Source of the DNA: an uncultured Bacteroidia bacterium
Lineage (GTDB): Bacteria; Bacteroidota; Bacteroidia; Bacteroidales; UBA932
NCBI GenBank assembly: GCA_902769525.1
Contig: CACXPG010000001.1
Location: 186,001-250,000 of the forward strand
Reading direction: 5' to 3'
DNA length: 64,000 nt
Numbering within the stretch: the first letter of the stretch is position 1; every line of letters begins with the position of its first letter. Positions 25,827 through 42,292 of the stretch are shown here, piece by piece. The notes under the pieces were generated by a model. It was not told the origin of the DNA, ran no database searches, and saw only the letters and a list, made by a program, of their open reading frames with translations. The translations under genes were made by a program, and so were the position numbers.

Positions 25827-26987
25827 TTATATCTTTTTCTCTTTCTGCAACCGAAAAAACTCTTTCTGTTGCTCAATCTCTCGCCTAAGTTCTTCTGAGG
25901 TTGGCATATAAGTAAGGTATTTGGCTGCAAAAAGTTGTTCATTCCCGTTCAAAACAGAATAGTGGGCTACATCATCATCTGTGTCAGAGCACAGTAATAT
26001 TCCAATTGTAGGATTGTGCCCTTCCTTGCATACGAGTTCATCATATAGTTTGACATACATATCCATTTGTCCCACATCTTGATACCTAAGTTTCTTTGTC
26101 TTGAGATCTATGAGAACAAAGCATTGTAATATATAGTTGTAGAACACTAAATCTATATAATAGTCTTCTTTTTCTGTATGTATGTGCTTTTGCCGGTCCA
26201 CGAAAGCAAAGCCTTTGCCCAGTTCCATCAAAAAGGGAATAAGATGATCTATAATGCTCTGTTCCAAGCTGCTTTCAGTGTAATCAGCATTATTCTTGAA
26301 TCCTAAGAACTCAGCGATTACCGGATTCTTCAGGTACTCCAGCTTGTCTTGCAGGGGTTTGGTAAGTTTAATCATCTCTTTATGAACAGTAGCTTTGTCC
26401 TGTGATTTGAGCAATCTATTGTAATACTGGGATGAAATGTTGCGCTGAAGGGTTCTTGTGCTCCACATTTCTTTGGCGGCTTCCTGTTCATACCAAACCC
26501 TGGCTTCTTCATCAGATACTTGAAGAATAATGCGATAATGTGTCCATGTTAGAGTTACTGGATATTTCCCGATCAATGATTGGAAAATGTTTCTGTCATT
26601 ATTATCCTTTGTTAGAGATTTTCCATGCAATGGTTGGAGAATGATATTCAAATCAACTTTTCCGGATTTTCTACTCACTGCGTAGAAAATGTCTGGATAT
26701 GTGTTGAAGAAAGCAATAAAATGGTAAAGATTGGCTGTTTGAAATCCATCCCCATATTTGTTCACCAAAGATAATGAGAGGTTCTTTATTATTCGCTTCC
26801 CATACTCTGCCCTTTTAAACTTCAGCACCTCCTGCTGAATACGCATTCCCAGCAGCCAGTTCCGCTTGATGAGAGTCTCATTTACCGCTCTGTATGCATA
26901 CTGTTGCGACTGTTCTATAATCAAAGACGCATCTTGCAGCAACCCTTTGTCAAGCAGATAGTCTTTCTCCTCCTTTTTCCTTCCCAT
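25827..26987 (-). CDS. DUF1016 (YhcG-type) PD-(D/E)XK nuclease family protein
   Basis: A 386-aa protein of the DUF1016/YhcG family. The N-terminal half (about residues 15-180) is the DUF1016_N helical, HTH-like region, with NWLLGMRIQQEVLK, YGKRIIKNLSLSLVNKYGDGF and LTWTHYRIIL. The C-terminal half is a PD-(D/E)XK nuclease fold with EDYYIDLVFYN, 5 residues, CFVLIDLKTKKL (Asp then the D-x-K core) and GQMDMYVKLYDE. Family members occur widely as scattered accessory genes and are linked to nucleic-acid processing and defence, but the target here is unknown. The gene is AT-rich compared with its neighbours, faces the TlpA-like gene tail to tail and is bracketed by the 110-bp repeats, all signs of transfer. 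Confidence 0.92.
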   Translation of the reverse strand: MGRKKEEKDYLLDKGLLQDASLIIEQSQQYAYRAVNETLIKRNWLLGMRIQQEVLKFKRAEYGKRIIKNLSLSLVNKYGDGFQTANLYHFIAFFNTYPDIFYAVSRKSGKVDLNIILQPLHGKSLTKDNNDRNIFQSLIGKYPVTLTWTHYRIILQVSDEEARVWYEQEAAKEMWSTRTLQRNISSQYYNRLLKSQDKATVHKEMIKLTKPLQDKLEYLKNPVIAEFLGFKNNADYTESSLEQSIIDHLIPFLMELGKGFAFVDRQKHIHTEKEDYYIDLVFYNYILQCFVLIDLKTKKLRYQDVGQMDMYVKLYDELVCKEGHNPTIGILLCSDTDDDVAHYSVLNGNEQLFAAKYLTYMPTSEELRREIEQQKEFFRLQKEKKI

Positions 26988-29089: not shown

Positions 29090-29776
29090 CTATCCATAGA
29101 CAGTAATATTTTTCAAGATGGCGGCAATCTCTGGCTCATCCCCCAATAAGGCAGTTAAAAACTGACGTATATTAGGCAATCTCCTTTTTGCCGTTGATTC
29201 TGATAGAAAGGAGATCTCTTTAAAAAGTGAGATTGGACCTTGCTGAGATTTTTTTATAATCTTCTGAAAGAAACGATTGCGAAGAATTGTTCTTCGAAGA
29301 AGCTCTTTTTCATCGAATGCCTCTAATTGAGGGTATATAATCCCTAAACAAGTGAGATAATACTGGCTATAATACGTATTAACTAGACCCAATTCTATAG
29401 CTGTCTTAGCGTGATTCTCTCCATATTTCCTCAAAGCACCATCTTTTCTCTCTTTTCCGTCATTGAGCAATGCACGCCCGACCTCAATATTTGAGAGGCC
29501 GTTGTTATCAACATCTGAGAGCACTTTACAAATACCTGTTGTCGCATCGGCGAAAGAGCTATACTGTACAACATCTTGGTAAGTAATGTAGCTAGTTGAA
29601 ACGTTGTTAATAATATAATGAATAAACTGAGTCAATGGACTCTTAATCAGAGATTTCACGTAAGAGACGATGAGGTCTGTGTCCATCTTGTAGTTGCGGA
29701 TGAACAACTTTTCGTTTATCTCGTTCTCGAAACTCTTAGAAAAGAATGTTGACAGAAGCTGAGCCGTATCGTTCAT
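29090..29776 (-). CDS. Unknown protein, last gene of radical SAM/ParB/helicase operon
   Basis: 228 aa, family not recognised. Predicted largely helical. It contains KERKDGALRKYGENHAKTAIELGLV near residue 110, which reads like a helix-turn-helix stretch, and a basic C-terminal segment (ESTAKRRLPNIRQFLTALLGD) that could be a second winged helix; DNA binding is therefore plausible but unproven. Its start overlaps the stop of the ParB-like gene by 4 bp (ATGA), so translation is coupled. It may be the effector or the DNA-recognition subunit of the set. A cluster-specific gene of unknown function such as this is the most likely novel component. Confidence 0.65.
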   Translation of the reverse strand: MNDTAQLLSTFFSKSFENEINEKLFIRNYKMDTDLIVSYVKSLIKSPLTQFIHYIINNVSTSYITYQDVVQYSSFADATTGICKVLSDVDNNGLSNIEVGRALLNDGKERKDGALRKYGENHAKTAIELGLVNTYYSQYYLTCLGIIYPQLEAFDEKELLRRTILRNRFFQKIIKKSQQGPISLFKEISFLSESTAKRRLPNIRQFLTALLGDEPEIAAILKNITVYG

Positions 29777-30762
29777 TTGATTTTATCGTAAATGCTCTCA
29801 AGCCTTTTAAATATCTTTTTGATGGTAAATCCAGCTTTACCCTTTATTTCATCATTACTCTCATTCAAGGTCTTTTCAAACTCTGGAGCATTAATGAGTT
29901 CACGGAACTTCTCCAGTTTTTTTATAAGATCATTGATTTGACCAGAATCTTGAAGAACATCGTAGGCATCACTTACGGTGATTTCCTTTTTCTTGATTCG
30001 CTCTACGGTCTTTTTGGCTGTCTTAGACTGGGAGGCCAGAATCTCGCCAAGCTTTCTCATTTCCATTGCTTGAGTGATTTGGCCTGACCGAACAGCTTCA
30101 ACTACTACTTTATCAAGTTCTTTGTCGGCCTCTCTATACTTCTTAACAGCCCGGTTCTTAAGATACTCTTCCCAATAACTCCACTTTTCAGGCATAAGTT
30201 CATTATTCTCTAACATAAACTCATACACTTTGATATAATTTTGAGCGACACCTGCCGTTATGCCCAACTCTTTTGCCATTGCTTCAACAGGATACCTGGT
30301 TTCTTGCTTTCTCCTATATAAGTAACCGGCCTGCTCGAAAGGGCTCCAATCTTTACGACCAACTATATGATACTGACCCAAAAGAGTAAAAATGGCAGAA
30401 TCATCAATGTCGGCCGGCAAAATGGTACACTTAACTTTTCCCCAACGAACAGGATCAACCCTACAGAGTAATCTATATGCAGCCAGACGACTATTGCCCT
30501 CCAGAACAACGAAGTCGCCATCTCTTACAATAAGAGGATCTATCAAGCCGCCATTCTCCTCTATCGAGAGTTTCAGCTGCTTAACATGCTCCATATTTGT
30601 CATTAACTCTTCTATCTCCTGTTGTGAAGGAGTCTCAGTTTGGGAGCGCAGAACGCTATATACTCGAGGGTTGTCGACATAAAACTTCAAATCGGCTTGA
30701 TTCAACTCATCAATCCGAACGTCGAATACTTTTTTCCCAATAGTTAATGTGTCTACTGTCAT
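29773..30762 (-). CDS. ParB/Srx-fold protein B of the six-gene operon
   Basis: 329 aa. The N-terminal ParB/sulfiredoxin-like domain has ENGGLIDPLIV (residues 69-79) and VVLEGNSRLAAYRLL (86-100), the phosphate-binding core of the fold. It is followed by HIVGRKDWSPFEQAGYLYRRK and a ParB-type HTH (AMAKELGITAGVAQNYIKVYEF, about 170-192). A Lys/Glu-rich helical C-terminus follows. In this fold the nucleotide (CTP or ATP) and DNA are bound; relatives serve in plasmid partition and in DNA-modification systems. It shares the H-x-V-G-x-[RK]-D-W-x-P motif with the other ParB-like protein in the operon, so the two are paralogues. It lies 11 bp after the helicase gene. Confidence 0.85.
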   Translation of the reverse strand: MTVDTLTIGKKVFDVRIDELNQADLKFYVDNPRVYSVLRSQTETPSQQEIEELMTNMEHVKQLKLSIEENGGLIDPLIVRDGDFVVLEGNSRLAAYRLLCRVDPVRWGKVKCTILPADIDDSAIFTLLGQYHIVGRKDWSPFEQAGYLYRRKQETRYPVEAMAKELGITAGVAQNYIKVYEFMLENNELMPEKWSYWEEYLKNRAVKKYREADKELDKVVVEAVRSGQITQAMEMRKLGEILASQSKTAKKTVERIKKKEITVSDAYDVLQDSGQINDLIKKLEKFRELINAPEFEKTLNESNDEIKGKAGFTIKKIFKRLESIYDKIK

Positions 30763-30773
30763 ATGCTTGGGCT

Positions 30774-32246
30774 TTATTCGTTTATATTGAGAATGTTCTT
30801 CACAAGATCACCAAAACTGTAATCCATATTCTGTTGATAATTAGACAATTTATAATCCCCCTGAGCAAGAAATGCAGCATTCTGTTTAGCTTGAAGAAGG
30901 ACATCAATCCATTTGTCAATGCTGTCTTCTATCATGAGATTATAAATGTTGCAGTCTTTCGTTTGCGAAATCCTATGAATTCTGTCTTGGGCCTGAAGGT
31001 AGTCATCAAGATTGAATCCACGGTCATAGAACACCACGTTATTGGCAACAGTCAAGGTCAAACCTTCTTTAGCGGATTGAGGCGTGGCAAATAGAACGTT
31101 ACTATCACCACGTTTGAAGATATCTACTGAACGATTACGGTCATCGATACTCATACGACCATGAATCTTTGTTGGCTTCAGGTCTTTATACTTTTTGTAG
31201 AAGTAATCGACATTTTCAATGAAAGAACTCCAAACAATAACCTTCTCCCCACGGGCAATAATTTCTTCCAAAAGTTTGTCCAAAGCCTGCTCTTTACCAG
31301 AGAAACTCGCGTAAAAGTCATCAATAAGGCGAGGATTTGAAGCAATCTGTACGAGTCTAAGTAAGCGCTTTAAAGAAGCTTCCGATTCGTCTAAAATAGT
31401 AGTATCTCCCCTCTGAACCAGAATCTGAAGATCATTACGAACCGACTCATACATTTCAAATTGACGCTTTTCAAAATCGCACCAAATTGACATGTATTTC
31501 TTTTGCGGCAGAGAGATTATGCCGCTGTCCTTTGTCTCTCTAACTGTGAATGCCTTAATCTTATCAAAGATTTCAGCAACGGAAGATTCAAAGACATCTC
31601 TTTTAAGTTGATTCTCAGACAAATCATTCGTTAAGTCAGTACGCTGCTTGAATGCCTTGAAATCGCAGCCCAAACTCATGCCAAAATCCAGGAAATAAAT
31701 CTGAGCCCAAATATCATACGGACGATTAGCCACGGGAGTTCCGGTCATTATTGTACGAATCTTGAATAGTGGCGCCAGATCAAAAAAAGCTTGAGTTAGT
31801 TTAGATTCCGGATTCTTAATCTTTGTTGATTCATCAACAATGACAGCAGTATTTCGAGCTTTTAAGAACAATGTCAATCTTTCTTGCTCTGTAGTGAATA
31901 TTTCAAAATTCGCGAGTAGCACTCTCGCGGGGCTGTTCAATACTAGGTAGTTATCCTTTTTGTTTGAAGAAAGAATCTTTGGCTGTAGATGAGTATGTGT
32001 ATGGAACTCATTAAACCAGTTATGGACCAATTGTTTCTTGGTCACAACCATTACTGTATCTACATCCTTTTTTTCCAGCCAATAGAGAAGGAGGTCTATC
32101 GCTATCTTGGTTTTACCTAATCCTTGCTCATGGAAAATAGCAGAATACGGCAAATCTTTCAGAGCCTCCACCGCTTCATGTTGATACGGGAATGCATCAA
32201 AAATGGCTGAATAATTAGCGACTGTCTGATGAATGATCTTACCCAT
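30774..32246 (-). CDS. SNF2-family helicase/translocase
   Basis: 490 aa, a compact superfamily 2 DNA translocase. Motif I is HEQGLGKTKIA (Gly42-Thr46), motif II VIVDESTKIKNP (Asp138-Glu139), motif III TGTPVANRPYDIWAQIYFLD. The C-terminal RecA lobe carries KVIVWSSF, HGRMSIDDR and motif V/VI FATPQSAKEGLTLTVANNVVFYDRGFN and QAQDRIHRISQTKD. It has no additional recognition domain, which suggests that the ParB-like or nuclease partners give specificity. Small SNF2 proteins of this kind occur in phages next to VRR-NUC nucleases and in Dpd/DISARM-like systems. Its start overlaps the nuclease stop by 1 bp. Confidence 0.93.
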   Translation of the reverse strand: MGKIIHQTVANYSAIFDAFPYQHEAVEALKDLPYSAIFHEQGLGKTKIAIDLLLYWLEKKDVDTVMVVTKKQLVHNWFNEFHTHTHLQPKILSSNKKDNYLVLNSPARVLLANFEIFTTEQERLTLFLKARNTAVIVDESTKIKNPESKLTQAFFDLAPLFKIRTIMTGTPVANRPYDIWAQIYFLDFGMSLGCDFKAFKQRTDLTNDLSENQLKRDVFESSVAEIFDKIKAFTVRETKDSGIISLPQKKYMSIWCDFEKRQFEMYESVRNDLQILVQRGDTTILDESEASLKRLLRLVQIASNPRLIDDFYASFSGKEQALDKLLEEIIARGEKVIVWSSFIENVDYFYKKYKDLKPTKIHGRMSIDDRNRSVDIFKRGDSNVLFATPQSAKEGLTLTVANNVVFYDRGFNLDDYLQAQDRIHRISQTKDCNIYNLMIEDSIDKWIDVLLQAKQNAAFLAQGDYKLSNYQQNMDYSFGDLVKNILNINE

Positions 32247-32668
32247 TACTTAATGTCTTTATAAACGCCCATTTCATTAAGTATCAAGACTCTTACATGC
32301 ATATTATTATTGACCTGCATATTACGCATAAGATTCGCAAAGGATGGAGAAATACGCCACGACCCAGATAGGATCAATAAAGACTCTCCACGAAATCTCT
32401 GGCACTCGCTTAAATATGATAAATATTGTTCTAAACTATGAGGCCGATTAAAATCATCGTCAGTCTTTGCTTCACCAATTATTAGAAGGTCGTTATGGCA
32501 ATAATACAAATCAGGACGGAAGTTATTGATAACATGTGGCGGAGTTTCTTTTTCATATGGAGAATCTACAAATACATGGATATACTCGCATTCCGGGAGT
32601 ATTGAACGTACGTACCCCTGAATGCTTATTACATAATCCATATGAGCAGCAGATTCCGCCATTTTCAT
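32246..32668 (-). CDS. Small PD-(D/E)XK nuclease-like protein
   Basis: 140 aa. A minimal PD-(D/E)XK signature is directly visible: FRPDLYYCHNDLLIIGEAKTDDDF, with Asp53 (RPD), then Glu66 and Lys68 (E-A-K) on adjacent strands, and SLEQYLSYLSEC as the following helix with a conserved-type Gln. Such restriction-endonuclease-like folds cut DNA with Mg2+. It sits between the SNF2 helicase and a ParB-like gene, overlapping each by 1 bp, so these three are translationally coupled. The start could be Met3 (32662). No DNA-recognition domain is attached, so targeting probably comes from a partner. Confidence 0.8.
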   Translation of the reverse strand: MKMAESAAHMDYVISIQGYVRSILPECEYIHVFVDSPYEKETPPHVINNFRPDLYYCHNDLLIIGEAKTDDDFNRPHSLEQYLSYLSECQRFRGESLLILSGSWRISPSFANLMRNMQVNNNMHVRVLILNEMGVYKDIK

Positions 32669-33678
32669 TACTCCGCGTTAAGATCATCAAGCATCATTTC
32701 CAGCTCCGAAAAGATGTCAATTAACAGAGTCATTTTATCTTCGTACTCCTTCGTCTCCTTCTTTTTAAGACTCTTGGATTCTGCATATGATATGTTACGT
32801 AATTTTGACAAGAAAGCACTTCCTAACTCGTCGTAACTGACCGCGGATAAGTCAACAGTAGAGTTTACAGTGATGTTCAGCTTCTTAATAGCATTGGTCA
32901 AATTGGTCTTCAGGAACTCCTTCTTGGCCTCCGGCTCTTTCAAGACTTGTGGAAGCTGACGAACATTTTGAGCTTTGTCAACATTCCCGTTTATAACCCA
33001 TAAAGCAAAATCTTTAGGCTCATATTTGGCAAACAACAACGCATCCAAAACCGGTTTGTTCTTATACTCGGCGAATTTGGAGAACTCGCGAATATCAACA
33101 TCTACGCCCATTTCCTTTGCTTGCGGAATGTAATACTTCTGCATGGTATCATAGGCTTCAATGAGCTTCAAGATCTCACTCCTTTTTCCTCCACAATATG
33201 AAATAATTGTTGACATTGGAAGCTTCTCCTCAAAGCAAAGGTGATAGAGATACTTAGCTTTGGAGTATGGATCCCAATCACGAGGGCCTACCATATGAGA
33301 CTGAAGACGAATTGAGTGAATCTCCTCCTCGGTTAAGTTTTCATAAACAATGGCGCGTATCTTCTTCCATAACCCACTAGGGTCTTTTGAGTCAAAATCC
33401 CTATATATCTGAAGGCGAGTATTTCCCTCGATCACTAAATACTTATCATCGGATATCTGGTTAACAATTATTGGATTAATAATACCCTTATTAACCCTGA
33501 TCGATTCTTTCAACGACAGGAAAGAAGTAGAACTATCTGATGCGCTACTGTTTAATGCAAGAGCAATAGCTTCAGCAGTGATGTTATCACCATACATCTC
33601 CAGGAACATTTTTATCCTTGGATTGTTGTGGTCGAGCTCAATTGAGTAAATGTCTAACTCTTGGTACGTTGAGGTCAT
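32668..33678 (-). CDS. ParB/Srx-fold protein A of the six-gene operon
   Basis: 336 aa. ParB/sulfiredoxin-like N-terminus with VNKGIINPIIV (62-72) and VIEGNTRLQIYRDF (82-95), then HMVGPRDWDPYSKAKYLYHLC, shared in pattern with the second ParB-like protein 2 kb away, and a helical segment (MSTIISYCGGKRSEILKLIEAYDTM) at the HTH position. The C-terminal half is helical with a Lys/Glu-rich region (about 300-320). It lies 34 bp after the radical SAM gene. Binding DNA and nucleotide is expected from the fold; whether it cuts DNA, as some family members do, cannot be seen. Confidence 0.85.
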   Translation of the reverse strand: MTSTYQELDIYSIELDHNNPRIKMFLEMYGDNITAEAIALALNSSASDSSTSFLSLKESIRVNKGIINPIIVNQISDDKYLVIEGNTRLQIYRDFDSKDPSGLWKKIRAIVYENLTEEEIHSIRLQSHMVGPRDWDPYSKAKYLYHLCFEEKLPMSTIISYCGGKRSEILKLIEAYDTMQKYYIPQAKEMGVDVDIREFSKFAEYKNKPVLDALLFAKYEPKDFALWVINGNVDKAQNVRQLPQVLKEPEAKKEFLKTNLTNAIKKLNITVNSTVDLSAVSYDELGSAFLSKLRNISYAESKSLKKKETKEYEDKMTLLIDIFSELEMMLDDLNAE

Positions 33679-33712
33679 ATTCTGAAGTTTTTTAATTATT
33701 CATCGGTTCATC

Positions 33713-34987
33713 TCATTCCCATAGAGAGGGGTCTACAAGAGATGTGTATTTAACTTTATCAAATAGGTCTTCCAATATGTCTCTCCTTTCAGAATACTTA
33801 TTTAGAAAAGCTTCGTATGTCCGTAGAGCCATACACTTGTGCTCAGGATTGGGGACATAAAACTGATTTCTATCAATAAACTCGTGAAAGGACATCTTTT
33901 TGTAGAACTGAGGTTGGTTGCACCATCGGGCAATTTGGGTATAAATATTCCCTAAAGGATGCTTTTTATAATCTTCATGACGCATCACATACCCTAAACA
34001 GCCATAACTCATAAGAATCTTGATTCTCCAGAACAACTGGCAGATATCTTCAAATACCTTCTCATCGCTCGTGGGCGTTAACTCAAAACCACAGAAAAGG
34101 TAGAACTTTGTTGTCTTATGAGGGCAATATTTTTTCCAAATCTTAAGCTTTTTTACTATGATATCACGGTCAGACCAGTGATCAAATGCGAATATCATAT
34201 CTCCGTGATAGCGCGCCATCCCAAGCAGTTGGGCCCTTTCCTTGTCAATCAAACGGATATCTAAGCCCTGACGGAACTGAAAGGGTTTTTTAGTGGCAAT
34301 CAACTCATTCAGTTTTTGCCTTACAAAACCAAGCGGCGCGGCAAAGAAATTATCATCCCAGAGGTAGATATAGGGACGGCGGTCATCAACAAAGTCTGAT
34401 AATTCCGAATGAGGATAAACGCGATTCTCAAGTTTGTTCACGCAGAACGAGCAATGGCGAAAGCAACCGCGAGTTAGGAACCCTATTGAGTAGTCGAGAT
34501 AATCCTTATAATAAACACGGCTTCTGCCTTTGGCGATCTGTTCTTCCATATATGACTTATACAAGTCATAGTCGGGCATTTGCCTCTTCATGTCTAGCCC
34601 TTTCAGACGAGGGTCTTTCTCTAGTTGATAAAAATCTTTTGATCTTTTCCTTAAGAACTTCTCTAAATCTTGCTCGGTTGCATACCAACCTGTACCACCG
34701 CAGGAAAACAAATCATGTCTTTTAACAGACGACGATTTCATATAATCCACATAGAATTGCGGAAGAGGAGTGAAAGTAAAAACTTTAGATAAATAGATAT
34801 GATCAAACGGAGAAATATCAGCATTGTTATCAGTAATCAACCTATAGGAGATCCCATGATCGCGCAAATAACCGGCAATTTTCAATAGGGCCAGATTAGG
34901 ATGCCTGGTCTCATTCGAAATCATGTCGGCATCAACTAAGCCATATAGTAACTCTCTTTTAGGCTTCATTGTAGGCAACACATCCAT
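33713..34987 (-). CDS. Radical SAM protein, first gene of six-gene operon
   Basis: 424 aa. The [4Fe-4S]-binding motif CFRHCSFC (Cys175, Cys179, Cys182) shows a radical SAM enzyme. The N-terminal about 90 residues (HPNLALLKIAGYLRDHGISYRLI, FDHIYLSKVFTFTP) resemble the degenerate B12-binding-like Rossmann domain of a radical SAM group seen in phages and integrative elements. IYLWDDNFFA and FQFRQGLDIRL are usual barrel motifs. Substrate unknown; possibilities include a nucleotide or DNA base, or a protein. No SPASM-type Cys-rich tail is evident. A palindrome overlapping a -7 box lies 16-52 bp upstream. Confidence 0.88.
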   Translation of the reverse strand: MDVLPTMKPKRELLYGLVDADMISNETRHPNLALLKIAGYLRDHGISYRLITDNNADISPFDHIYLSKVFTFTPLPQFYVDYMKSSSVKRHDLFSCGGTGWYATEQDLEKFLRKRSKDFYQLEKDPRLKGLDMKRQMPDYDLYKSYMEEQIAKGRSRVYYKDYLDYSIGFLTRGCFRHCSFCVNKLENRVYPHSELSDFVDDRRPYIYLWDDNFFAAPLGFVRQKLNELIATKKPFQFRQGLDIRLIDKERAQLLGMARYHGDMIFAFDHWSDRDIIVKKLKIWKKYCPHKTTKFYLFCGFELTPTSDEKVFEDICQLFWRIKILMSYGCLGYVMRHEDYKKHPLGNIYTQIARWCNQPQFYKKMSFHEFIDRNQFYVPNPEHKCMALRTYEAFLNKYSERRDILEDLFDKVKYTSLVDPSLWE

Positions 34988-35733: not shown

Positions 35734-37077
35734 ATGGAACCTGAAAGACTCTTCAAACGCAAGATTTATGACCGCCTTCTTCAGTGGAAGGAAAGCAGTA
35801 ATGGGAAGACCGCTCTCCTCATTGAGGGAGCTCGCCGGATCGGTAAGTCTACCATTGTGAAAGCGTTCGCCCAAAACGAATACGAATCATTCATCTTTAT
35901 TGACTTCACTAAGTGCTCCCAAGAGGTGAAGAACCTGTTTAACGATGTCTCTGATCTTAACTACATCTTTCTCAGGTTACAACTCGCTTATGGGGTACAA
36001 CTTGTGGAACGCAAGTCCCTTATCGTATTCGACGAAGTGCAGTTCCAGCCCCTTGCTCGACAGGCAATCAAGTCGTTTGTAGAAGACCATCGATACGATT
36101 ACATTGAAACCGGCTCGCTAATCTCCATCCGCAAAAACACGGAAAACATTCTCATCCCTAGTGAGGAGGAACGAATCAGCATGTATCCCATGGACTATGA
36201 AGAGTTTCGCTGGGCTCTGGGAGATACCGCCACCATCCCGCTACTTCGTTCCGTTTGGGAACATCCCCAGCCGTTGAAGGAGGTGCATCGCAAACTCATG
36301 CGCGACTTCCGGCTCTATATGCTTGTGGGGGGAATGCCCCAGGCCGTAGATGCCTATATTGAGTCCAACAACTTCGAGGTTGTAGATCATGCAAAACGCT
36401 TAATTCTTGACCTATATGACGAAGATTTCGGTAAGATCGACCCGACAGGAAAAGCCGCAAGAATCTTCGCGGCCATACCGGCTCAGCTCAATAGCAATGC
36501 TTCTCGCTACCAGATATCCAATGTCATCCCCGGAGCCCATGCGGAAGACTTCGTTGAACTCATTTCTGAAATGGAGAAATCCAGGACCGTCAATATCTCG
36601 CATCACAGCGATGACCCGAATGTGGGCCTAGGCAGTACCGAAGCTCTGATGCAGTACAAAATGTTTGTTGGTGACACCGGCCTTTTCGTGACACTTGCCT
36701 TCCGAGATAAAGCGTTCACCGAGAACATCATTTATGAGCGTTTGCTTAGCGATAAGTTGGCGGCCAACCTGGGCTACCTTTACGAGAACATCGTTGCTCA
36801 GATGCTCACGGCCTCTGGAAACAAACTGTTCTATCACGTCTGGCCCACGAAGAGTGGCAAGCACAACTACGAGGTTGACTTCCTACTGTCCCGGGGCACG
36901 AAGATTACGCCCATTGAGGTAAAATCTTCTTCCTACAAAACGCATGTGTCGCTAGATGCTTTCTGTAAGAAATACTCTTCTCGCATAACAAATGATCGAT
37001 ACCTGATTTATACAAAGGATTATGCACACGAAGAGTCGGTCAAGTATATACCAGCCTATTTAACATTGTTTCTTTAA
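35734..37077 (+). CDS. ATP-binding protein, AAA_14/DUF4143 family
   Basis: 447 aa. The Walker A motif EGARRIGKST (residues 31-40) and Walker B-like SLIVFDEVQFQP (about 93-104) are intact. MYPMDYEEFRWALGD is the middle signature of these ATPases, and the C-terminal third is a DUF4143 domain ending in an endonuclease-like fold (YEVDFLLSRGTKITPIEVKSS, with D, E and K in PD-(D/E)XK-like order). Such genes are very common, lineage-scattered accessory genes of Bacteroidetes with unknown physiological function. Composition is closer to the genomic average than that of the island to its left. It reads away from the island. Confidence 0.9.
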   Translation: MEPERLFKRKIYDRLLQWKESSNGKTALLIEGARRIGKSTIVKAFAQNEYESFIFIDFTKCSQEVKNLFNDVSDLNYIFLRLQLAYGVQLVERKSLIVFDEVQFQPLARQAIKSFVEDHRYDYIETGSLISIRKNTENILIPSEEERISMYPMDYEEFRWALGDTATIPLLRSVWEHPQPLKEVHRKLMRDFRLYMLVGGMPQAVDAYIESNNFEVVDHAKRLILDLYDEDFGKIDPTGKAARIFAAIPAQLNSNASRYQISNVIPGAHAEDFVELISEMEKSRTVNISHHSDDPNVGLGSTEALMQYKMFVGDTGLFVTLAFRDKAFTENIIYERLLSDKLAANLGYLYENIVAQMLTASGNKLFYHVWPTKSGKHNYEVDFLLSRGTKITPIEVKSSSYKTHVSLDAFCKKYSSRITNDRYLIYTKDYAHEESVKYIPAYLTLFL

Positions 37078-38513: not shown

Positions 38514-38567
38514 GGTACTAGTTTTTAAAACGTGATAAACAAAGATACGGAAATTCCCGGTCTCTTC

Positions 38568-39935
38568 CTATTCAGTAATCACGATTTTGATAACCAGCGG
38601 GCATTCAATGGCTGACATCTCCAAAACAGGATCCTTCTCGGAAGGGAAAGTCTTGACCTCCCTGGATGCTATATTGTAATGTGTTCCGACAAGAGCTGCC
38701 TTAGGGACATAGGTGCGGAGAATGATAACCCTGTTGTTTTCGTTACTGTAGGCCATCAGCACCTTGCTGCCAGGGCCGGTAATGATACCATGTACCATCT
38801 TCTTTCTTGGAGTAGCCTCAATCTCGGATTCTTTGTATCCAAGCTTTTCAAGGGCTGAGGTAAGGTCATACTCATAGGTCTTTCTGGTAATGGATCCGTC
38901 TGGGTTTTCCTGGATGAAATCAGAAACCTTCAGGTTGAGGGTAACCGTATCCCTATAACGGCTGTACCATACCATCTCTACAGGGAATACTGAACGGCCA
39001 CCGTAACGGTCAAACGCGTGAACCTTGCCCTTTACTGTAAGGGTGTTGAACTTGGTGGTGTCCATAAGAGCCTGCCATTCAGGCTTGGAAGTGTCCGGAA
39101 GGAACTTTACATAAGCTGAATCGCGATGAGGCTCAAAGATAACAATAGAGTCTGCCTTTGAGTTGCCCTCCCATACGAATGAAGATATGTATTTGGTAGA
39201 GTATGTGCGGGTGTCGTTCTTGTCCTTTTCGTTAACATACAGGCGACGGTCAAAAGAAACGGCGATAGATCCAAGAGACACCTCCCAAGTGCTCACGGTT
39301 TCCTCAGGGTCGGAGCCAGGAACGACTGTTGTCTTGACGTCTCCGTGGGTAACGTTGCCGCGGATGAAGCTCCACTTGGTAAGTCCCTCTTCAGGAGTAG
39401 GCATCATCACCAGGCTGAAAGGAGTTGAGCTAACATACTGGATCTTCTCCTCTTTGTCCTTGTAGCCGCCTACGAGAGAGAAAATGTCATCCTCGATCAT
39501 GTTACGGGTCTCTGTGCTCTTCATCCTTATGAAGTACTGGCCCTCCATATCCTCTTTTGCCTCGTTCTGGGTAACGCCCATCGAGTCAATCTTGAAGTTG
39601 GTGGACTCGGTAATGTAGGAAGCCATTGTCTCTGGAGTGTAGATGAACCTCTTGGCAGACATGTTGTCAAGAACAACCATATCCTGGGTAAACGGAATTC
39701 CGGAAGGGTTTACACGGAAAATCACCGCATAAGGAAGTCCCTTTGACACTGTGTCGTGCTGAGCATAGCTCACAAAACCGAAAACCTGGTCGCTGATCTT
39801 CAGGCCTGTTACGGCATCCTTGAGGTCATCGATATTGTTTTCAATTTCGGTTGTGTCCTTGTCGTAGATTTCTGTTTTATCGCATCCTGCCATCACGAAT
39901 AAAGAGATGGCAATAAGCAGAAGATACTTTTTCAT
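38568..39935 (-). CDS. Large Bacteroidetes lipoprotein of unknown function
   Basis: 455 aa. The signal peptide ends with lipobox MAGC (Cys18). A short coiled-coil-like segment follows (TTEIENNIDDLKDAVTGLK, about 28-46). The rest is beta-rich with repeated strand patterns and no recognised catalytic motif (for example VDSLIVFEPHRD-like strands and ALVGTHYNIASREVKTFPSE). Surface-exposed lipoproteins of this style are common in the phylum. It precedes the GlsB gene by 54 bp and follows the 164-aa secreted protein by 25 bp, so the three could be co-transcribed. Confidence 0.75.
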   Translation of the reverse strand: MKKYLLLIAISLFVMAGCDKTEIYDKDTTEIENNIDDLKDAVTGLKISDQVFGFVSYAQHDTVSKGLPYAVIFRVNPSGIPFTQDMVVLDNMSAKRFIYTPETMASYITESTNFKIDSMGVTQNEAKEDMEGQYFIRMKSTETRNMIEDDIFSLVGGYKDKEEKIQYVSSTPFSLVMMPTPEEGLTKWSFIRGNVTHGDVKTTVVPGSDPEETVSTWEVSLGSIAVSFDRRLYVNEKDKNDTRTYSTKYISSFVWEGNSKADSIVIFEPHRDSAYVKFLPDTSKPEWQALMDTTKFNTLTVKGKVHAFDRYGGRSVFPVEMVWYSRYRDTVTLNLKVSDFIQENPDGSITRKTYEYDLTSALEKLGYKESEIEATPRKKMVHGIITGPGSKVLMAYSNENNRVIILRTYVPKAALVGTHYNIASREVKTFPSEKDPVLEMSAIECPLVIKIVITE

Positions 39936-39960
39936 AGACTCTGTATTATTTAATTGTTAA

Positions 39961-40425
39961 TTATTCCATTACTGGCACGCTTCTTCCGGCTTTCTTGAAA
40001 AGATCCTTGTAGAAGCTGTTTTCTATCACCTTACGGATGCAGGTGTTGGTTGCCTTGTAACCATTGAACATGGTAGCGTCGGCTTTGATCTTATCTCCCT
40101 TCCAGAGAACATTTGAGTCCTTGTCCAGTACGGAAGGAGTCATCCAGGTACGAGGGCTGTTGAAAACCACCTTCTTCCTGGTCTCGACGCGAAGAATGAA
40201 ATCAGCCTCTTCTGCAGTCTCCACTGCTGTCCACTGGCCGGCATTTGAGAATTCACGAATAACGTCAGCCACTTCGTCTGCAGGAATAGGATGTTCATTG
40301 TCGTTGACAATCTGCACAAACACTTTGTTGCCGGCGGCAACGGCTTCTGACAGGGAAGTCTGGGCAAAAGCACTGGTTCCGGCGAAACCAAGCACTGCCA
40401 TTAATGAAAGTACGAATTTTCTCAT
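39961..40425 (-). CDS. Small secreted protein of unknown function
   Basis: 154 aa from ATG 40425. The signal peptide ends AFAQ (residue 22). The mature part, with SLSEAVAAGNKVFVQIVNDNEHPIPADEVADVIREF, GQWTAVETAEEADFILRVETR and WTMPSVLDKDSNVLW-type strands, resembles the alpha/beta fold of small periplasmic proteins in which an LxVE strand follows an EEADF turn. Family not identified. The longer frame to 40455 has no signal peptide at its start and is rejected. It shares a 163-bp divergent control region with the TPR-AraC gene. Confidence 0.7.
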   Translation of the reverse strand: MRKFVLSLMAVLGFAGTSAFAQTSLSEAVAAGNKVFVQIVNDNEHPIPADEVADVIREFSNAGQWTAVETAEEADFILRVETRKKVVFNSPRTWMTPSVLDKDSNVLWKGDKIKADATMFNGYKATNTCIRKVIENSFYKDLFKKAGRSVPVME

Positions 40426-40588
40426 TTTACAGGATTTGTTATTAATAAATGACAAAAGTATCGATTCTGACTTTTGTGCTTGGCCAAAAGACGCGACGGT
40501 TTCTTGTGGTTATGCGACAAAACGTGTCATTTTGGTCTATTTGTCAAAAAATGACGCCGTTTTGGTCGGGGTTGAGTAAATTTGCAAT
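40426..40588. promoter_or_regulatory. Divergent control region with repeated TGTCA/GGTC boxes
   Basis: 163 bp. TGTCATTTTGGTC (40525-40537) and GACGCCGTTTTGGTC (40553-40567) are in the same orientation and share TTTTGGTC; a GACA-AAACG-TGTC inverted repeat covers 40516-40528. The reverse complement GACCAAAATG also occurs upstream of groES at 10937-10946. TAAATTTG at 40577-40584 is a perfect -7 box but ends only 4 bp before ATG 40589, so the message would be almost leaderless. Confidence 0.5.
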
Positions 40589-42292
40589 ATGAATCTTCTA
40601 AAAGCAATTAGACATATTTTTATCTTCTCTGGCACCGCTCTGGCTTGCCTTTGCTGCAGCCCTGACAAGGCGGATTCGAATAAAGTCTCCGGGAATAGCG
40701 ACCCTCAGGCTATTTCCGAAGAATACATAAGAAACCTGGGCAAGACAGATATAGACGGGGCCATGTACAAAGTAACAGAAGGTGCTTCAAAGGGAATTTT
40801 CACGCCTCTGGAGGCAAATCTGCTTAGGGCAAAGCTCTTTTACCAATATTCCGAGGACTATGACCAGGCCCTGCAATGGTGCCAGGAAGCCCTTATGACC
40901 AAAGAAGCCCAGGAAGACAGTCTCAAAAGGCTGGAAGTGCTCCGGAATATCCAGACCATAACCCAGACCAAGAAAGACTATCCGGCAATGCTCTCGGCCT
41001 GCAGGCAAGGTCAGGATCTGGCCAGAAGCCTTGGTCTTGAACTGGACGGACTGGCTTTTGATTATGCCGTAGGAAGGTGCATGTACTACACAGGACAGCA
41101 GGAAGAAGGGCTGAGGGTTATGGAAGAATCCGTGGAAAAGGCCCTGAAGATGGTTAAAACCCAGAGTGAATACGGCCACTGGATTACGTGCATAGGAAAT
41201 CTGACCAACACCTATGTAGGAGCGGAAAACTGGCAGAAAGCCGTCCAGAAATGCGACCAGCAGCAAAAGGTTCTTCAGGAAATGGCTCTGAAGTTTCCTC
41301 AAGACGACTTTTCAACGAACTGGGGAGACCGTGTGCTGTTCTACTCAAGAATCAACAAGGCTATCTCGCTTTGGGAACTTGGGCAGGCAAAACAGGCAGA
41401 GAACCTGTTTTCACAGGCCCTGAAGCAAGATTACGCTTCAACCTCTGACGGAGTGTTCCGCCAAAGCGGCTATTACGCAAAGACCGGGAGACCGGACAAG
41501 GTTACCGAGTGTCTGGAACTGTCCCCTTACTCAGGTAAGGATACCGTAGACAGAAGATATGTTTCCAGGCTGTCGAGACTGGAAGAAGCATACAGAATAG
41601 CCAAGGACTCCACGAACGCGAACCTTCTGGCTGAAAGAATCGCCGGCCTGAACAGGCAGATTGAGGAAATCGAAAGCAGGACCGTTGCTGCAGATGTCGA
41701 AGGTTACAAGTCCAGAAACTACAAGTTCAAGATCAATGACCTCTCTGCCACCCTGAAAACCAACAACATCATCCTGATAGCCCTCTCTGCCCTGATTCTT
41801 ATTCTGCTGATAGCAGGAACAGCACAGTACATCAACAAATACAGAAGACGCAAGACAATAAATACCATACTGTCAGAGAATATCAAGATCAAGAAGGAAA
41901 TAGAGACCCTTCGTTCCCTGATAGCCGTCCAGAATCCGAAAACCGAGGACAAAGACAGGCAGGTGTCTTCTCTTGTCAACATTTTCAAGGAAAAACAGTT
42001 CTTTCTCAACAAGATGATGTCAATTTCCATGGCAGCCGGACTTTTGGGCTGTTCACAGCGCGAACTCAGGCGTATGATTGAAGCAATCGAACCCGGGATG
42101 ACCTTCCCTCGCTTTATCAGCAGCCTGAGAATCGACTATGCCAAATCGCTGATGGAAAAAGAACCGGCGCTGCCTGTTTCGGAGATAGCGGACCAGTCCG
42201 GCTTCTACAGCACAAGAACATTCCAGCGCACTTTCCTCGCCACTACGGGCCAGACTCCTAGTGATTATCGCTCAAAGCGGAAAAATGACTAA
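40589..42292 (+). CDS. TPR / transmembrane / AraC-HTH regulator
   Basis: 567 aa. The N-terminal signal ends in a Cys cluster (ALACLCCSP), then about 350 residues of helical TPR-like repeats (for example LLRAKLFYQYSEDYDQALQWCQEAL and LAFDYAVGRCMYYTGQQEEGLRVMEESV). A transmembrane helix (about 388-410; IILIALSALILILLIAGTA) and a coiled-coil lead to a C-terminal AraC HTH, degenerate in its first helix (FPRFISSLRIDYAKSLM, VSEIADQSGFYSTRTFQRTF). This is the TPR variant of the membrane AraC regulators of Bacteroidetes, sensing an unknown periplasmic signal. Likely targets are the divergent lipoprotein genes or the S37 peptidase gene behind it. Confidence 0.88.
   Translation: MNLLKAIRHIFIFSGTALACLCCSPDKADSNKVSGNSDPQAISEEYIRNLGKTDIDGAMYKVTEGASKGIFTPLEANLLRAKLFYQYSEDYDQALQWCQEALMTKEAQEDSLKRLEVLRNIQTITQTKKDYPAMLSACRQGQDLARSLGLELDGLAFDYAVGRCMYYTGQQEEGLRVMEESVEKALKMVKTQSEYGHWITCIGNLTNTYVGAENWQKAVQKCDQQQKVLQEMALKFPQDDFSTNWGDRVLFYSRINKAISLWELGQAKQAENLFSQALKQDYASTSDGVFRQSGYYAKTGRPDKVTECLELSPYSGKDTVDRRYVSRLSRLEEAYRIAKDSTNANLLAERIAGLNRQIEEIESRTVAADVEGYKSRNYKFKINDLSATLKTNNIILIALSALILILLIAGTAQYINKYRRRKTINTILSENIKIKKEIETLRSLIAVQNPKTEDKDRQVSSLVNIFKEKQFFLNKMMSISMAAGLLGCSQRELRRMIEAIEPGMTFPRFISSLRIDYAKSLMEKEPALPVSEIADQSGFYSTRTFQRTFLATTGQTPSDYRSKRKND

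What the first reader, a model, noticed from the sequence alone, without database searches (positions are those of the whole stretch)
29090..34987. Six-gene operon: radical SAM, ParB-like, PD-(D/E)XK nuclease, SNF2 helicase, ParB-like, unknown
Seen: six minus-strand genes in AT-rich DNA, four of the five junctions overlapping by 1 or 4 bp or spaced 11 bp, the fifth 34 bp. Motifs are intact: CFRHCSFC; two EGN[ST]RL ParB cores; RPD...EAK; SNF2 motifs I-VI. Known: ParB/Srx proteins and SNF2 ATPases occur in 7-deazaguanine DNA modification (Dpd) and DISARM-like systems, and VRR-NUC/SNF2 pairs occur in phages. Inference: a mobile defence or DNA-modification module in which the radical SAM enzyme makes a modification, the ParB-like pair reads or licenses DNA, and nuclease plus translocase restrict. 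I do not recognise this combination as a named system; a prophage DNA-metabolism remnant is the main alternative.
Basis: partly seen in the sequence, partly recalled or inferred. Interest (0 to 1): 0.87.

Follow-up and report, generated by a model that had tools for sequence, protein, structure and literature searches.

The report
Radical-SAM / ParB restriction-like defence operon
A rare, mobile set of genes that looks like a new kind of bacterial immune system: one enzyme probably marks the cell's own DNA chemically and a four-protein machine probably attacks unmarked, foreign DNA.

Summary
The six genes are real and at the stated coordinates. The conserved unit is the inner four: ParB-like 1, small PD-(D/E)XK nuclease, SNF2 ATPase, ParB-like 2. 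They keep order and strand in all 22 loci counted (window, 8 genomes, 8 IMG/VR contigs, 5 plasmids), from six phyla by record title. Five genome samples (225-397 each) held no orthologue beyond the seed. In 20 of 22 loci a radical SAM (rSAM) enzyme is adjacent: 5 short-form, 15 long-form, the latter always with a GHKL/HSP90-like ATPase. In the other two (Saccharibacteria, no such rSAM found in the genome) a D12 DNA methyltransferase takes its place and is shared with the cassette in one 5.9-kb block. rSAM also occurs beside HerA/NurA-like or NERD-helicase genes and, in viral contigs, often near DNA methyltransferases. Best reading: a restriction-modification-like system with an exchangeable marking enzyme. 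The mark and anti-phage activity are undemonstrated. No family model or paper found names the combination. The sixth gene is accessory (2 of 22). The operon lies in a 13.5-kb segment missing from two same-genus genomes.

The parts
33713..34987 (-). Short-form radical SAM enzyme (424 aa): N-terminal Rossmann-like domain plus rSAM core with CxxxCxxC (CFRHCSFC); proposed DNA-marking enzyme
   Evidence: phrog_9298, E 2.6e-39; fold matches MiaB, MtaB, TokK; no Pfam match
32668..33678 (-). ParB-like protein 1 (336 aa), EGNTR motif; core cassette gene 1
   Evidence: ParB_N 8.1e-5, below curated cut-off; Noc structures, E 0.003-0.013
32246..32668 (-). Small PD-(D/E)XK nuclease (140 aa), ESxxH...PD...GEAK; core cassette gene 2
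   Evidence: (pLDDT 92.9); no family-library match
30774..32246 (-). Minimal SNF2-type ATPase/translocase (490 aa); core cassette gene 3
   Evidence: (SNF2-rel_dom 1e-28; Helicase_C 1.6e-19)
29773..30762 (-). ParB-like protein 2 (329 aa), EGNSR motif; core cassette gene 4
   Evidence: ParB_N 0.12, below cut-off; ParB structures, E 0.005
29090..29776 (-). Accessory protein of unknown function (228 aa); its one relative found (L013) carries a C-terminal peptidase S24 domain, so possibly a regulator
   Evidence: PF00717 in L013, E 9.8e-14; 37% identity
24740..38255 (.). Variable segment holding the operon; in two same-genus genomes the flanking matches are 0.7 and 0.1 kb apart instead of 13.5 kb
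   Evidence: a third genome was inconclusive

Best explanation
A mobile, restriction-modification-like defence system. Shown: a four-gene cassette (ParB-like 1, PD-(D/E)XK nuclease, SNF2 ATPase, ParB-like 2) stays together as a block and is coupled to one of several alternative neighbours: short rSAM, long rSAM with GHKL ATPase (with or without DGQHR), or a D12 DNA methyltransferase. Inferred: the rSAM enzyme marks host DNA at particular sites, most likely by adding a methyl or related group at a position that ordinary methyltransferases cannot reach. The two ParB-like proteins bind DNA as a nucleotide-gated, perhaps clamp-like, pair that checks for the mark. On unmarked DNA they recruit the SNF2 translocase and the small nuclease, which moves along and cuts it. 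The sixth gene product would be an accessory regulator.
For: Cassette order and strand kept in 22 of 22 loci counted, from Bacteroidota, Bacillota, Saccharimonadota, Thermodesulfobacteriota, Nitrospirota and Pseudomonadota by record title. In 72,556 plasmid records a ParB2 search (E 1e-5) and an SNF2 search (E 1e-60) return the same 7 records. A putative modification gene is adjacent in 22 of 22: rSAM in 20, D12 methyltransferase in 2. No rSAM of this family was found in the genomes of the two D12 loci. Their shared DNA (89%) is one 5.9-kb block holding cassette plus methyltransferase; only four short matches (50-128 bp) occur elsewhere in the fetched stretches. Two Rhizobium plasmids likewise share a 7.4-kb block from ParB1 into the GHKL gene, plus two short upstream matches at another spacing. 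In one cassette group of 8 (support 100/100; root drawn at the midpoint) all three partner types occur. Long rSAM also lies with NurA-like, HerA and GHKL genes in 4 loci, and short rSAM with a NERD-helicase in 1. In viral contigs the short rSAM lies within 5 kb of a ParB-N6/N4 methyltransferase cluster in 22 of 48 dereplicated loci, a C5-methyltransferase-like cluster in 11 and a MetK-like cluster in 6. The rSAM fold matches MiaB, MtaB and TokK; that the first two modify tRNA and TokK methylates is recalled. Variable position, rarity and, in four loci, defence-type neighbours.
Against: No modified base and no anti-phage effect has been shown. The methyltransferase exchange rests on one lineage (two related loci), and absence of rSAM there is from metagenome assemblies that may be incomplete. 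MiaB and MtaB modify tRNA, so the rSAM substrate could be RNA. The rSAM fold matches have TM 0.40-0.43 and rmsd about 11 A, so the reaction is not settled. Near the viral-contig rSAM genes there are also ordinary phage clusters (HNH in 7 of 48, small terminase in 6 of 48, large-terminase-like in 6 of 48). ParB_N matches are below the Pfam cut-off. Eight of 22 loci are viral-contig predictions and six of the eight genome loci are titled MAG, so four of the six phyla rest on metagenome binning. The SNF2 protein matches phage family phrog_62 (1.2e-95).
Confidence: 0.6

Rival explanations
1. Defence without DNA marking: the rSAM enzyme makes an antiviral small molecule or nucleotide (as viperins do) or modifies tRNA, and the ParB-SNF2-nuclease cassette recognises foreign DNA by structure or replication state.
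For: Prokaryotic viperins are anti-phage rSAM enzymes (passage read in PMC12926258); MiaB and MtaB are the top fold matches (their tRNA substrates recalled).
Against: No viperin is among the 50 rSAM fold matches listed; a DNA methyltransferase takes the place of rSAM in two loci; rSAM lies near DNA methyltransferase clusters in viral contigs.
Confidence: 0.15
2. Phage or plasmid DNA metabolism: a partition, recombination or replication module of mobile elements.
For: Eight IMG/VR contigs carry the cassette and seven plasmid records match ParB2 (six fetched, one of them a divergent variant); SNF2 matches phage family phrog_62 at 1.2e-95; an archaeal virus has rSAM beside a ParB-like gene and a phrog_62 helicase; L013 has a CHC2-primase-like gene about 5 kb beyond ParB2.
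Against: No ParB2 match in 50,697 phage records (E 1e-5); all 544 phage records with an SNF2 match are under 60% identity and the 12 listed under 30%; no ParA family among the six proteins; neither a nuclease nor an alternation between rSAM and DNA methyltransferase is expected of a partition module (inference).
Confidence: 0.1
3. Modification-dependent (type IV-like) attack: phages carry the rSAM-made mark and the bacterial cassette cuts marked DNA; the host rSAM gene would have another role.
For: Short rSAM is frequent in viral contigs (138 confirmed candidates, 80 kept), often near DNA methyltransferase clusters.
Against: The cassette is itself linked to rSAM or a D12 methyltransferase in 22 of 22 loci, which would be self-damaging if the mark were the target.
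Confidence: 0.08

Closest known systems
Dpd (7-deazaguanine DNA modification) system
   Same: Relatives of the window carry a DGQHR/DpdB-like protein (L008: DpdB model E 9.6e-12); the SNF2 protein resembles the DpdE core (8.6e-43)
   Different: No DpdA/TGT family among the six window proteins; rSAM instead; the window operon has no DpdB-like gene; paired ParB-like proteins and a separate small nuclease
Zorya ZorD and DISARM DrmD helicases
   Same: SNF2 core of the same broad type (ZorD 3e-46, DrmD 1.7e-16)
   Different: Only the motor core is shared; no other Zorya or DISARM model among the matches listed for the six proteins (for SNF2 25 of 30 matches were shown)
PD-Lambda-5 and candidate PDC-M38A
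   Same: ParB-like proteins match parts of these models (best E 2.3e-6 and 2.6e-11); the L005 methyltransferase matches PD-Lambda-5_B at 4.7e-11, far below MTase_II at 3e-84
   Different: No SNF2-nuclease cassette or rSAM in PD-Lambda-5 as I recall it; not checked in a call
DNA phosphorothioation (Dnd), DndB
   Same: DGQHR proteins of the relatives match DndB (PF14072: L008 0.0015 and L044 2.6e-5, both below cut-off; the large L044 protein 9.9e-15, above it)
   Different: No Dnd family among the six window proteins
Radical SAM enzymes MiaB, MtaB, TokK
   Same: Domain order and overall fold
   Different: 10-14% identity in the structural alignments; no invariant cysteine in the N-terminal domain, whereas MiaB uses three for a second cluster (recalled)

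Membership tests
Dpd system | DpdA tRNA-guanine-transglycosylase-like enzyme | tested here: not met
   No TGT family among the six window proteins; the rest of the genome was not searched for it
Dpd system | DpdB-like ATPase | tested here: not met
   None in the window stretch scanned; strong DGQHR match in 9 of 22 cassette loci
Zorya | ZorA/ZorB membrane motor with ZorC/D or ZorE (recalled) | tested here: not met
   Only the SNF2 core matches ZorD among the listed matches
DISARM | DrmA, DrmB and a DNA methyltransferase (recalled) | tested here: not met
   Only the helicase core matches DrmD
Dnd/Ssp phosphorothioation | DndC/SspD-type sulfur-transfer genes | tested here: not met
   No such family among the six proteins
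Prokaryotic viperin | Viperin-like rSAM sequence, fold and product | tested here: inconclusive
   No PADLOC family matched the rSAM protein; no viperin in the 50 fold matches listed; product not testable
ParABS partition | ParA ATPase next to ParB, and parS sites | tested here: inconclusive
   No ParA family among the six proteins; parS sites were not searched for
PD-(D/E)XK nuclease superfamily | Core fold with PD...(D/E)xK | tested here: met
   Motif in 15 of 15 aligned nucleases (15 of the 22 loci were aligned; one has AD for PD); confident model, XisH, YaeQ and resolvase among the matches; that XisH and YaeQ belong to the superfamily is recalled
Radical SAM superfamily | CxxxCxxC motif and rSAM core fold | tested here: met
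   Three cysteines invariant in 32 of 32 rows; best fold matches are rSAM enzymes
ParB/Srx superfamily | ParB N-terminal domain | tested here: inconclusive
   ParB_N 8.1e-5 and 0.12, both below the curated cut-off; profile matches to Noc and ParB structures, best E 0.003 and 0.005; not folded
Restriction-modification (functional class) | Modification enzyme protects DNA from its partner nuclease | not testable with these tools
   Genetic linkage only

The most novel reading that the evidence does not exclude
A previously undescribed class of restriction-modification in which a radical SAM enzyme installs an unknown carbon-linked base modification as the self mark, serviced by interchangeable restriction modules (ParB-nuclease-SNF2-ParB, NurA-like/HerA, NERD-helicase), and which phages counter by carrying their own rSAM gene.
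Probability: 0.42. Interest if true: 0.93.

Novelty: new variant of a known kind. Interest (0 to 1): 0.8.

Why it matters
If right, it predicts an undescribed DNA modification made by radical chemistry, in bacteria and in uncultured phages, and gives a genetic handle (cassette plus exchangeable partner) for finding it by mass spectrometry. It would also give paired ParB-like proteins a direct role as self/non-self readers in restriction, and offer a function for a family of phage rSAM genes that has none assigned.

Tried and rejected
Filing under Dpd, Zorya, DISARM, Dnd or PD-Lambda-5: rejected, only single domains match. A six-gene unit: rejected in favour of a four-gene core, since the sixth gene was found in 1 of the 21 other loci (L013). 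Widening by genome sampling with ParB2: five samples (395, 286, 397, 344 and 225 genomes; the 344 are from an order inside the phylum of the 395, so they may overlap) gave no further orthologue. Three weaker ParB matches (L028-L030) show no other cassette gene in the 3.5 kb held around each. Third relative for the empty site (L229) matched on one side only. A second window segment, about 38.5-42.3 kb, is also missing in both informative relatives, so the region is variable beyond the operon. Divergent variants L025 and L135 (nuclease scores 27 and 36, weak ParB scores) were scanned but left out of the 22. Plasmid record H2, nearly identical to H1 in match, was not fetched. In L011 the D12 profile hits a 99-aa ORF upstream of ParB1 (50 bits); it is too short to be the methyltransferase and was not counted as one. 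Nuclease scan of viral contigs added no new contig. P0006 had no match in phages. Novelty searches: (ten); listings were seen, passages of PMC10853773, PMC12839542 and PMC12926258 were read, no other paper was opened. None seen describes this combination; most subscription journals and bioRxiv preprints are not in that library.
Full report
OBSERVATION. The six ORFs, junctions and motifs are as described. GC is 0.36-0.40 across the operon against about 0.50 in most of the window. All six proteins were scanned against Pfam, PADLOC, NCBIfam and PHROGs. The rSAM protein matches only phrog_9298 (2.6e-39) at a useful level. The ParB-like proteins match ParB_N below the curated cut-off and several ParB-like or unnamed phage families (best phrog_3694, 6e-13 and 1.1e-15). 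The SNF2 protein is a bare motor, also close to phrog_62 (1.2e-95). The nuclease and the sixth protein match nothing significant.

THE CASSETTE. A genome-contig search with ParB-like 2 gave 8 loci, all with ParB1-nuclease-SNF2-ParB2 in that order. Viral-contig searches with ParB2 and ParB1 gave 8 distinct contigs, and a plasmid search 7 records, of which six were fetched. A uniform profile scan of the window and 23 loci finds the four genes in the same order and strand in 22; the other two (L025, L135) are divergent variants with weak ParB and nuclease scores. In plasmids, searches with ParB2 (E 1e-5) and SNF2 (E 1e-60) return the same 7 records. Phyla are by record title: six of the eight genome loci are titled MAG, and only Clostridium paridis and the Pseudomonadota plasmids are clearly from isolates, so four of the six phyla rest on metagenome binning. 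In 15 aligned nucleases (15 of the 22 loci) the positions E-S..H, D, GEAKT and Q are invariant. The nuclease model has pLDDT 92.9; the best matches are XisH-family proteins (2okf, E 1.4e-3, prob 1.00, TM 0.50), with YaeQ and a Holliday-junction resolvase lower. ParB-like 1 and 2 profiles reach Noc and ParB structures at best E 0.003 and 0.005.

THE PARTNER. Of the 22 loci, 5 have the short rSAM (window, L002, L003, L004, L013). Fifteen have the long rSAM, always with a GHKL/HSP90-like ATPase (profile match to HtpG, 6.9e-14) and in 9 also with a DGQHR protein near DpdB/DndB. Two (L005, L006) have a D12-class DNA methyltransferase (PF02086, 6.1e-50 in L005; L006 by similarity), convergent with ParB2. 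No rSAM of this family was found in the genomes of L005 and L006, which are metagenome assemblies. L005 and L006 share one 5.9-kb block at 89% identity, from before ParB1 to beyond the methyltransferase, and otherwise only four matches of 50-128 bp. The methyltransferase is not a common gene there: 7 of 145 genomes of the phylum match it, one being the query genome and six at 34-41% identity. A tree of the concatenated ParB1, SNF2 and ParB2 proteins (midpoint root) puts the window with L003, L004 and L013, and a group of 8 (support 100/100) holds all three partner types: short rSAM in 5, D12 in 2, long rSAM plus GHKL in L011. The window genome has no match to the GHKL profile at E 1e-5, so the window version is reduced.

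rSAM WITH OTHER MODULES. Twelve of 16 plasmid records with a long-rSAM match hold it at over 80% coverage, and all twelve are among the 13 records of the GHKL search. Seven of the twelve are the ParB2 records. The other five (Novosphingobium pNL1 twice, Agrobacterium S7/73, Rhizobium AB2/73 twice) have no ParB2 match; three of the five were fetched and each is annotated with a 769-786-aa DGQHR protein near the rSAM (one scanned, PF14072 9.9e-15). NurA-like, HerA, GHKL and rSAM genes occur together in L141, L144, L145 and L050; Marinitoga camini virus 1 has rSAM beside HerA and an exonuclease gene without a GHKL match. HerA is by match to 7f6d (2.5e-43) in L145 and by profile in the rest. The name NurA-like is recalled and rests on the Marinitoga annotation and a profile score of 79; the two tested in PADLOC (L145, L141) and the one tested in Pfam (L050) match no family. 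L049 has a short rSAM followed by a NERD-helicase.

rSAM IN VIRAL CONTIGS. The short-rSAM scan kept 80 of 138 confirmed candidates. In 70 of the 80 an rSAM ORF was called, 48 after dereplication; one of the 48 (L054) is the L013 cassette contig. Within 5 kb of rSAM: a ParB-N6/N4-methyltransferase cluster in 22 of 48 (median distance 14 bp), a C5-methyltransferase-like cluster in 11, SNF2-like in 8, an HNH cluster in 7, a cluster without family in 7, MetK-like in 6, small terminase in 6, large-terminase-like in 6, ThyX in 3. Cluster names come from single representatives; the C5 name is from a similar phage protein (L046) and the large-terminase name is by eye. So the neighbourhood is rich in DNA methylation genes but also holds ordinary phage genes.

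rSAM CHEMISTRY. The window rSAM model (pLDDT 89.7) has an N-terminal Rossmann-like domain and an rSAM core; the best PDB matches are MiaB (7.2e-7), MtaB (6.5e-6) and TokK (2.0e-4). TM-scores are 0.40-0.43 and rmsd about 11 A, so this places the architecture, not the reaction. Over 32 rows of both forms only the three rSAM cysteines are invariant cysteines. In the 8 short-form rows C330 and C356 are invariant too; they could be catalytic or bind something, which is inference. No N-terminal cysteine is invariant, which argues against a MiaB-type second cluster (recalled) and leaves a cobalamin-type or other rSAM reaction.

CONTEXT. In two same-genus genomes the matches flanking the operon's segment are 0.7 and 0.1 kb apart, where the window has 13.5 kb; a third genome was inconclusive, and a neighbouring segment is variable as well. 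Defence-type neighbours were seen among proteins I chose to scan: DUF1016/YhcG in the window, AbiH in L004, a Schlafen-g3 helicase in L002, AlbA_2 in L003. Integrase or recombinase genes lie near in L006, L018 and L019 and, as annotated, L021, L023 and L024. Five genome samples gave no orthologue beyond the seed (thresholds 1e-10, 1e-15, 1e-30, 1e-30, 1e-30).

MECHANISM. A modification-type enzyme next to the cassette in 22 of 22 loci, its replacement by a DNA methyltransferase in one lineage, and rSAM beside other motor or nuclease genes fit a marking enzyme plus a restriction machine. Shown: gene content, order, model folds, shared blocks. Inferred: DNA as substrate, host marking, reading of the mark by the ParB pair, translocation and cutting. 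The main weaknesses are that the methyltransferase exchange rests on one lineage and that no activity has been measured.

NOVELTY. No model matched in Pfam, PADLOC 2.0.0, NCBIfam or PHROGs names the combination. Ten full-text searches listed no paper that I could see describing it; three were read in passages. The individual folds are known; the combination and the rSAM-for-methyltransferase exchange were not found. I rate it a new variant of a known kind (restriction-modification-like) and keep the bolder reading in the section on the most novel reading.

Noticed in passing
window 25827-26987 (-): DUF1016/YhcG PD-(D/E)XK nuclease in the same variable segment (PADLOC PDC-S02, E 6.4e-125; Pfam)
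   Followed up: partly
window 35734-37077 (+): AAA_14/DUF4143 ATPase on the other side of the operon
   Followed up: no
window about 38530-42270: A second stretch without a match in both informative relatives
   Followed up: no
L013 13870-16567: Relative of the sixth gene product fused to a peptidase S24 (LexA/CI-type) domain, followed by a 514-aa protein without family
   Followed up: partly
L021 16935-20418; L022 17387-20908; L023 17279-20795: PIN-like domain protein plus a second GHKL ATPase next to the seven-gene set in rhizobial plasmids; also near the rSAM set in L043 and L044
   Followed up: partly
L044 6499-8859; L043 13183-15492: Large DGQHR protein (786 and 769 aa) with the rSAM set where no ParB cassette was found
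   Followed up: partly
L141, L144, L145, L050, L048: NurA-like and HerA genes beside long rSAM, with a GHKL match in all but L048
   Followed up: partly
L049 1485-7027: Gut phage scaffold with short rSAM (49% to the window), NERD-helicase and a 794-aa protein without family
   Followed up: partly
L046 6018-10932; L051-L130: Phage rSAM genes near ParB-methyltransferase, C5-methyltransferase-like, MetK-like and ThyX genes; possible undescribed phage DNA modification
   Followed up: partly
L047 6581-9846: Archaeal virus vir335: rSAM beside a phrog_62 DNA helicase and a ParB-like gene that overlaps it on the other strand as annotated
   Followed up: no
L030 585-2616: ParB-like gene (27% to ParB2) preceded by an ORF that looks D12-methyltransferase-like by eye; no family search run
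   Followed up: no
L025, L135: Divergent cassette (three ParB-like proteins in L025, two in L135; SNF2 at 35-36% identity) beside the DGQHR-rSAM-GHKL set
   Followed up: partly
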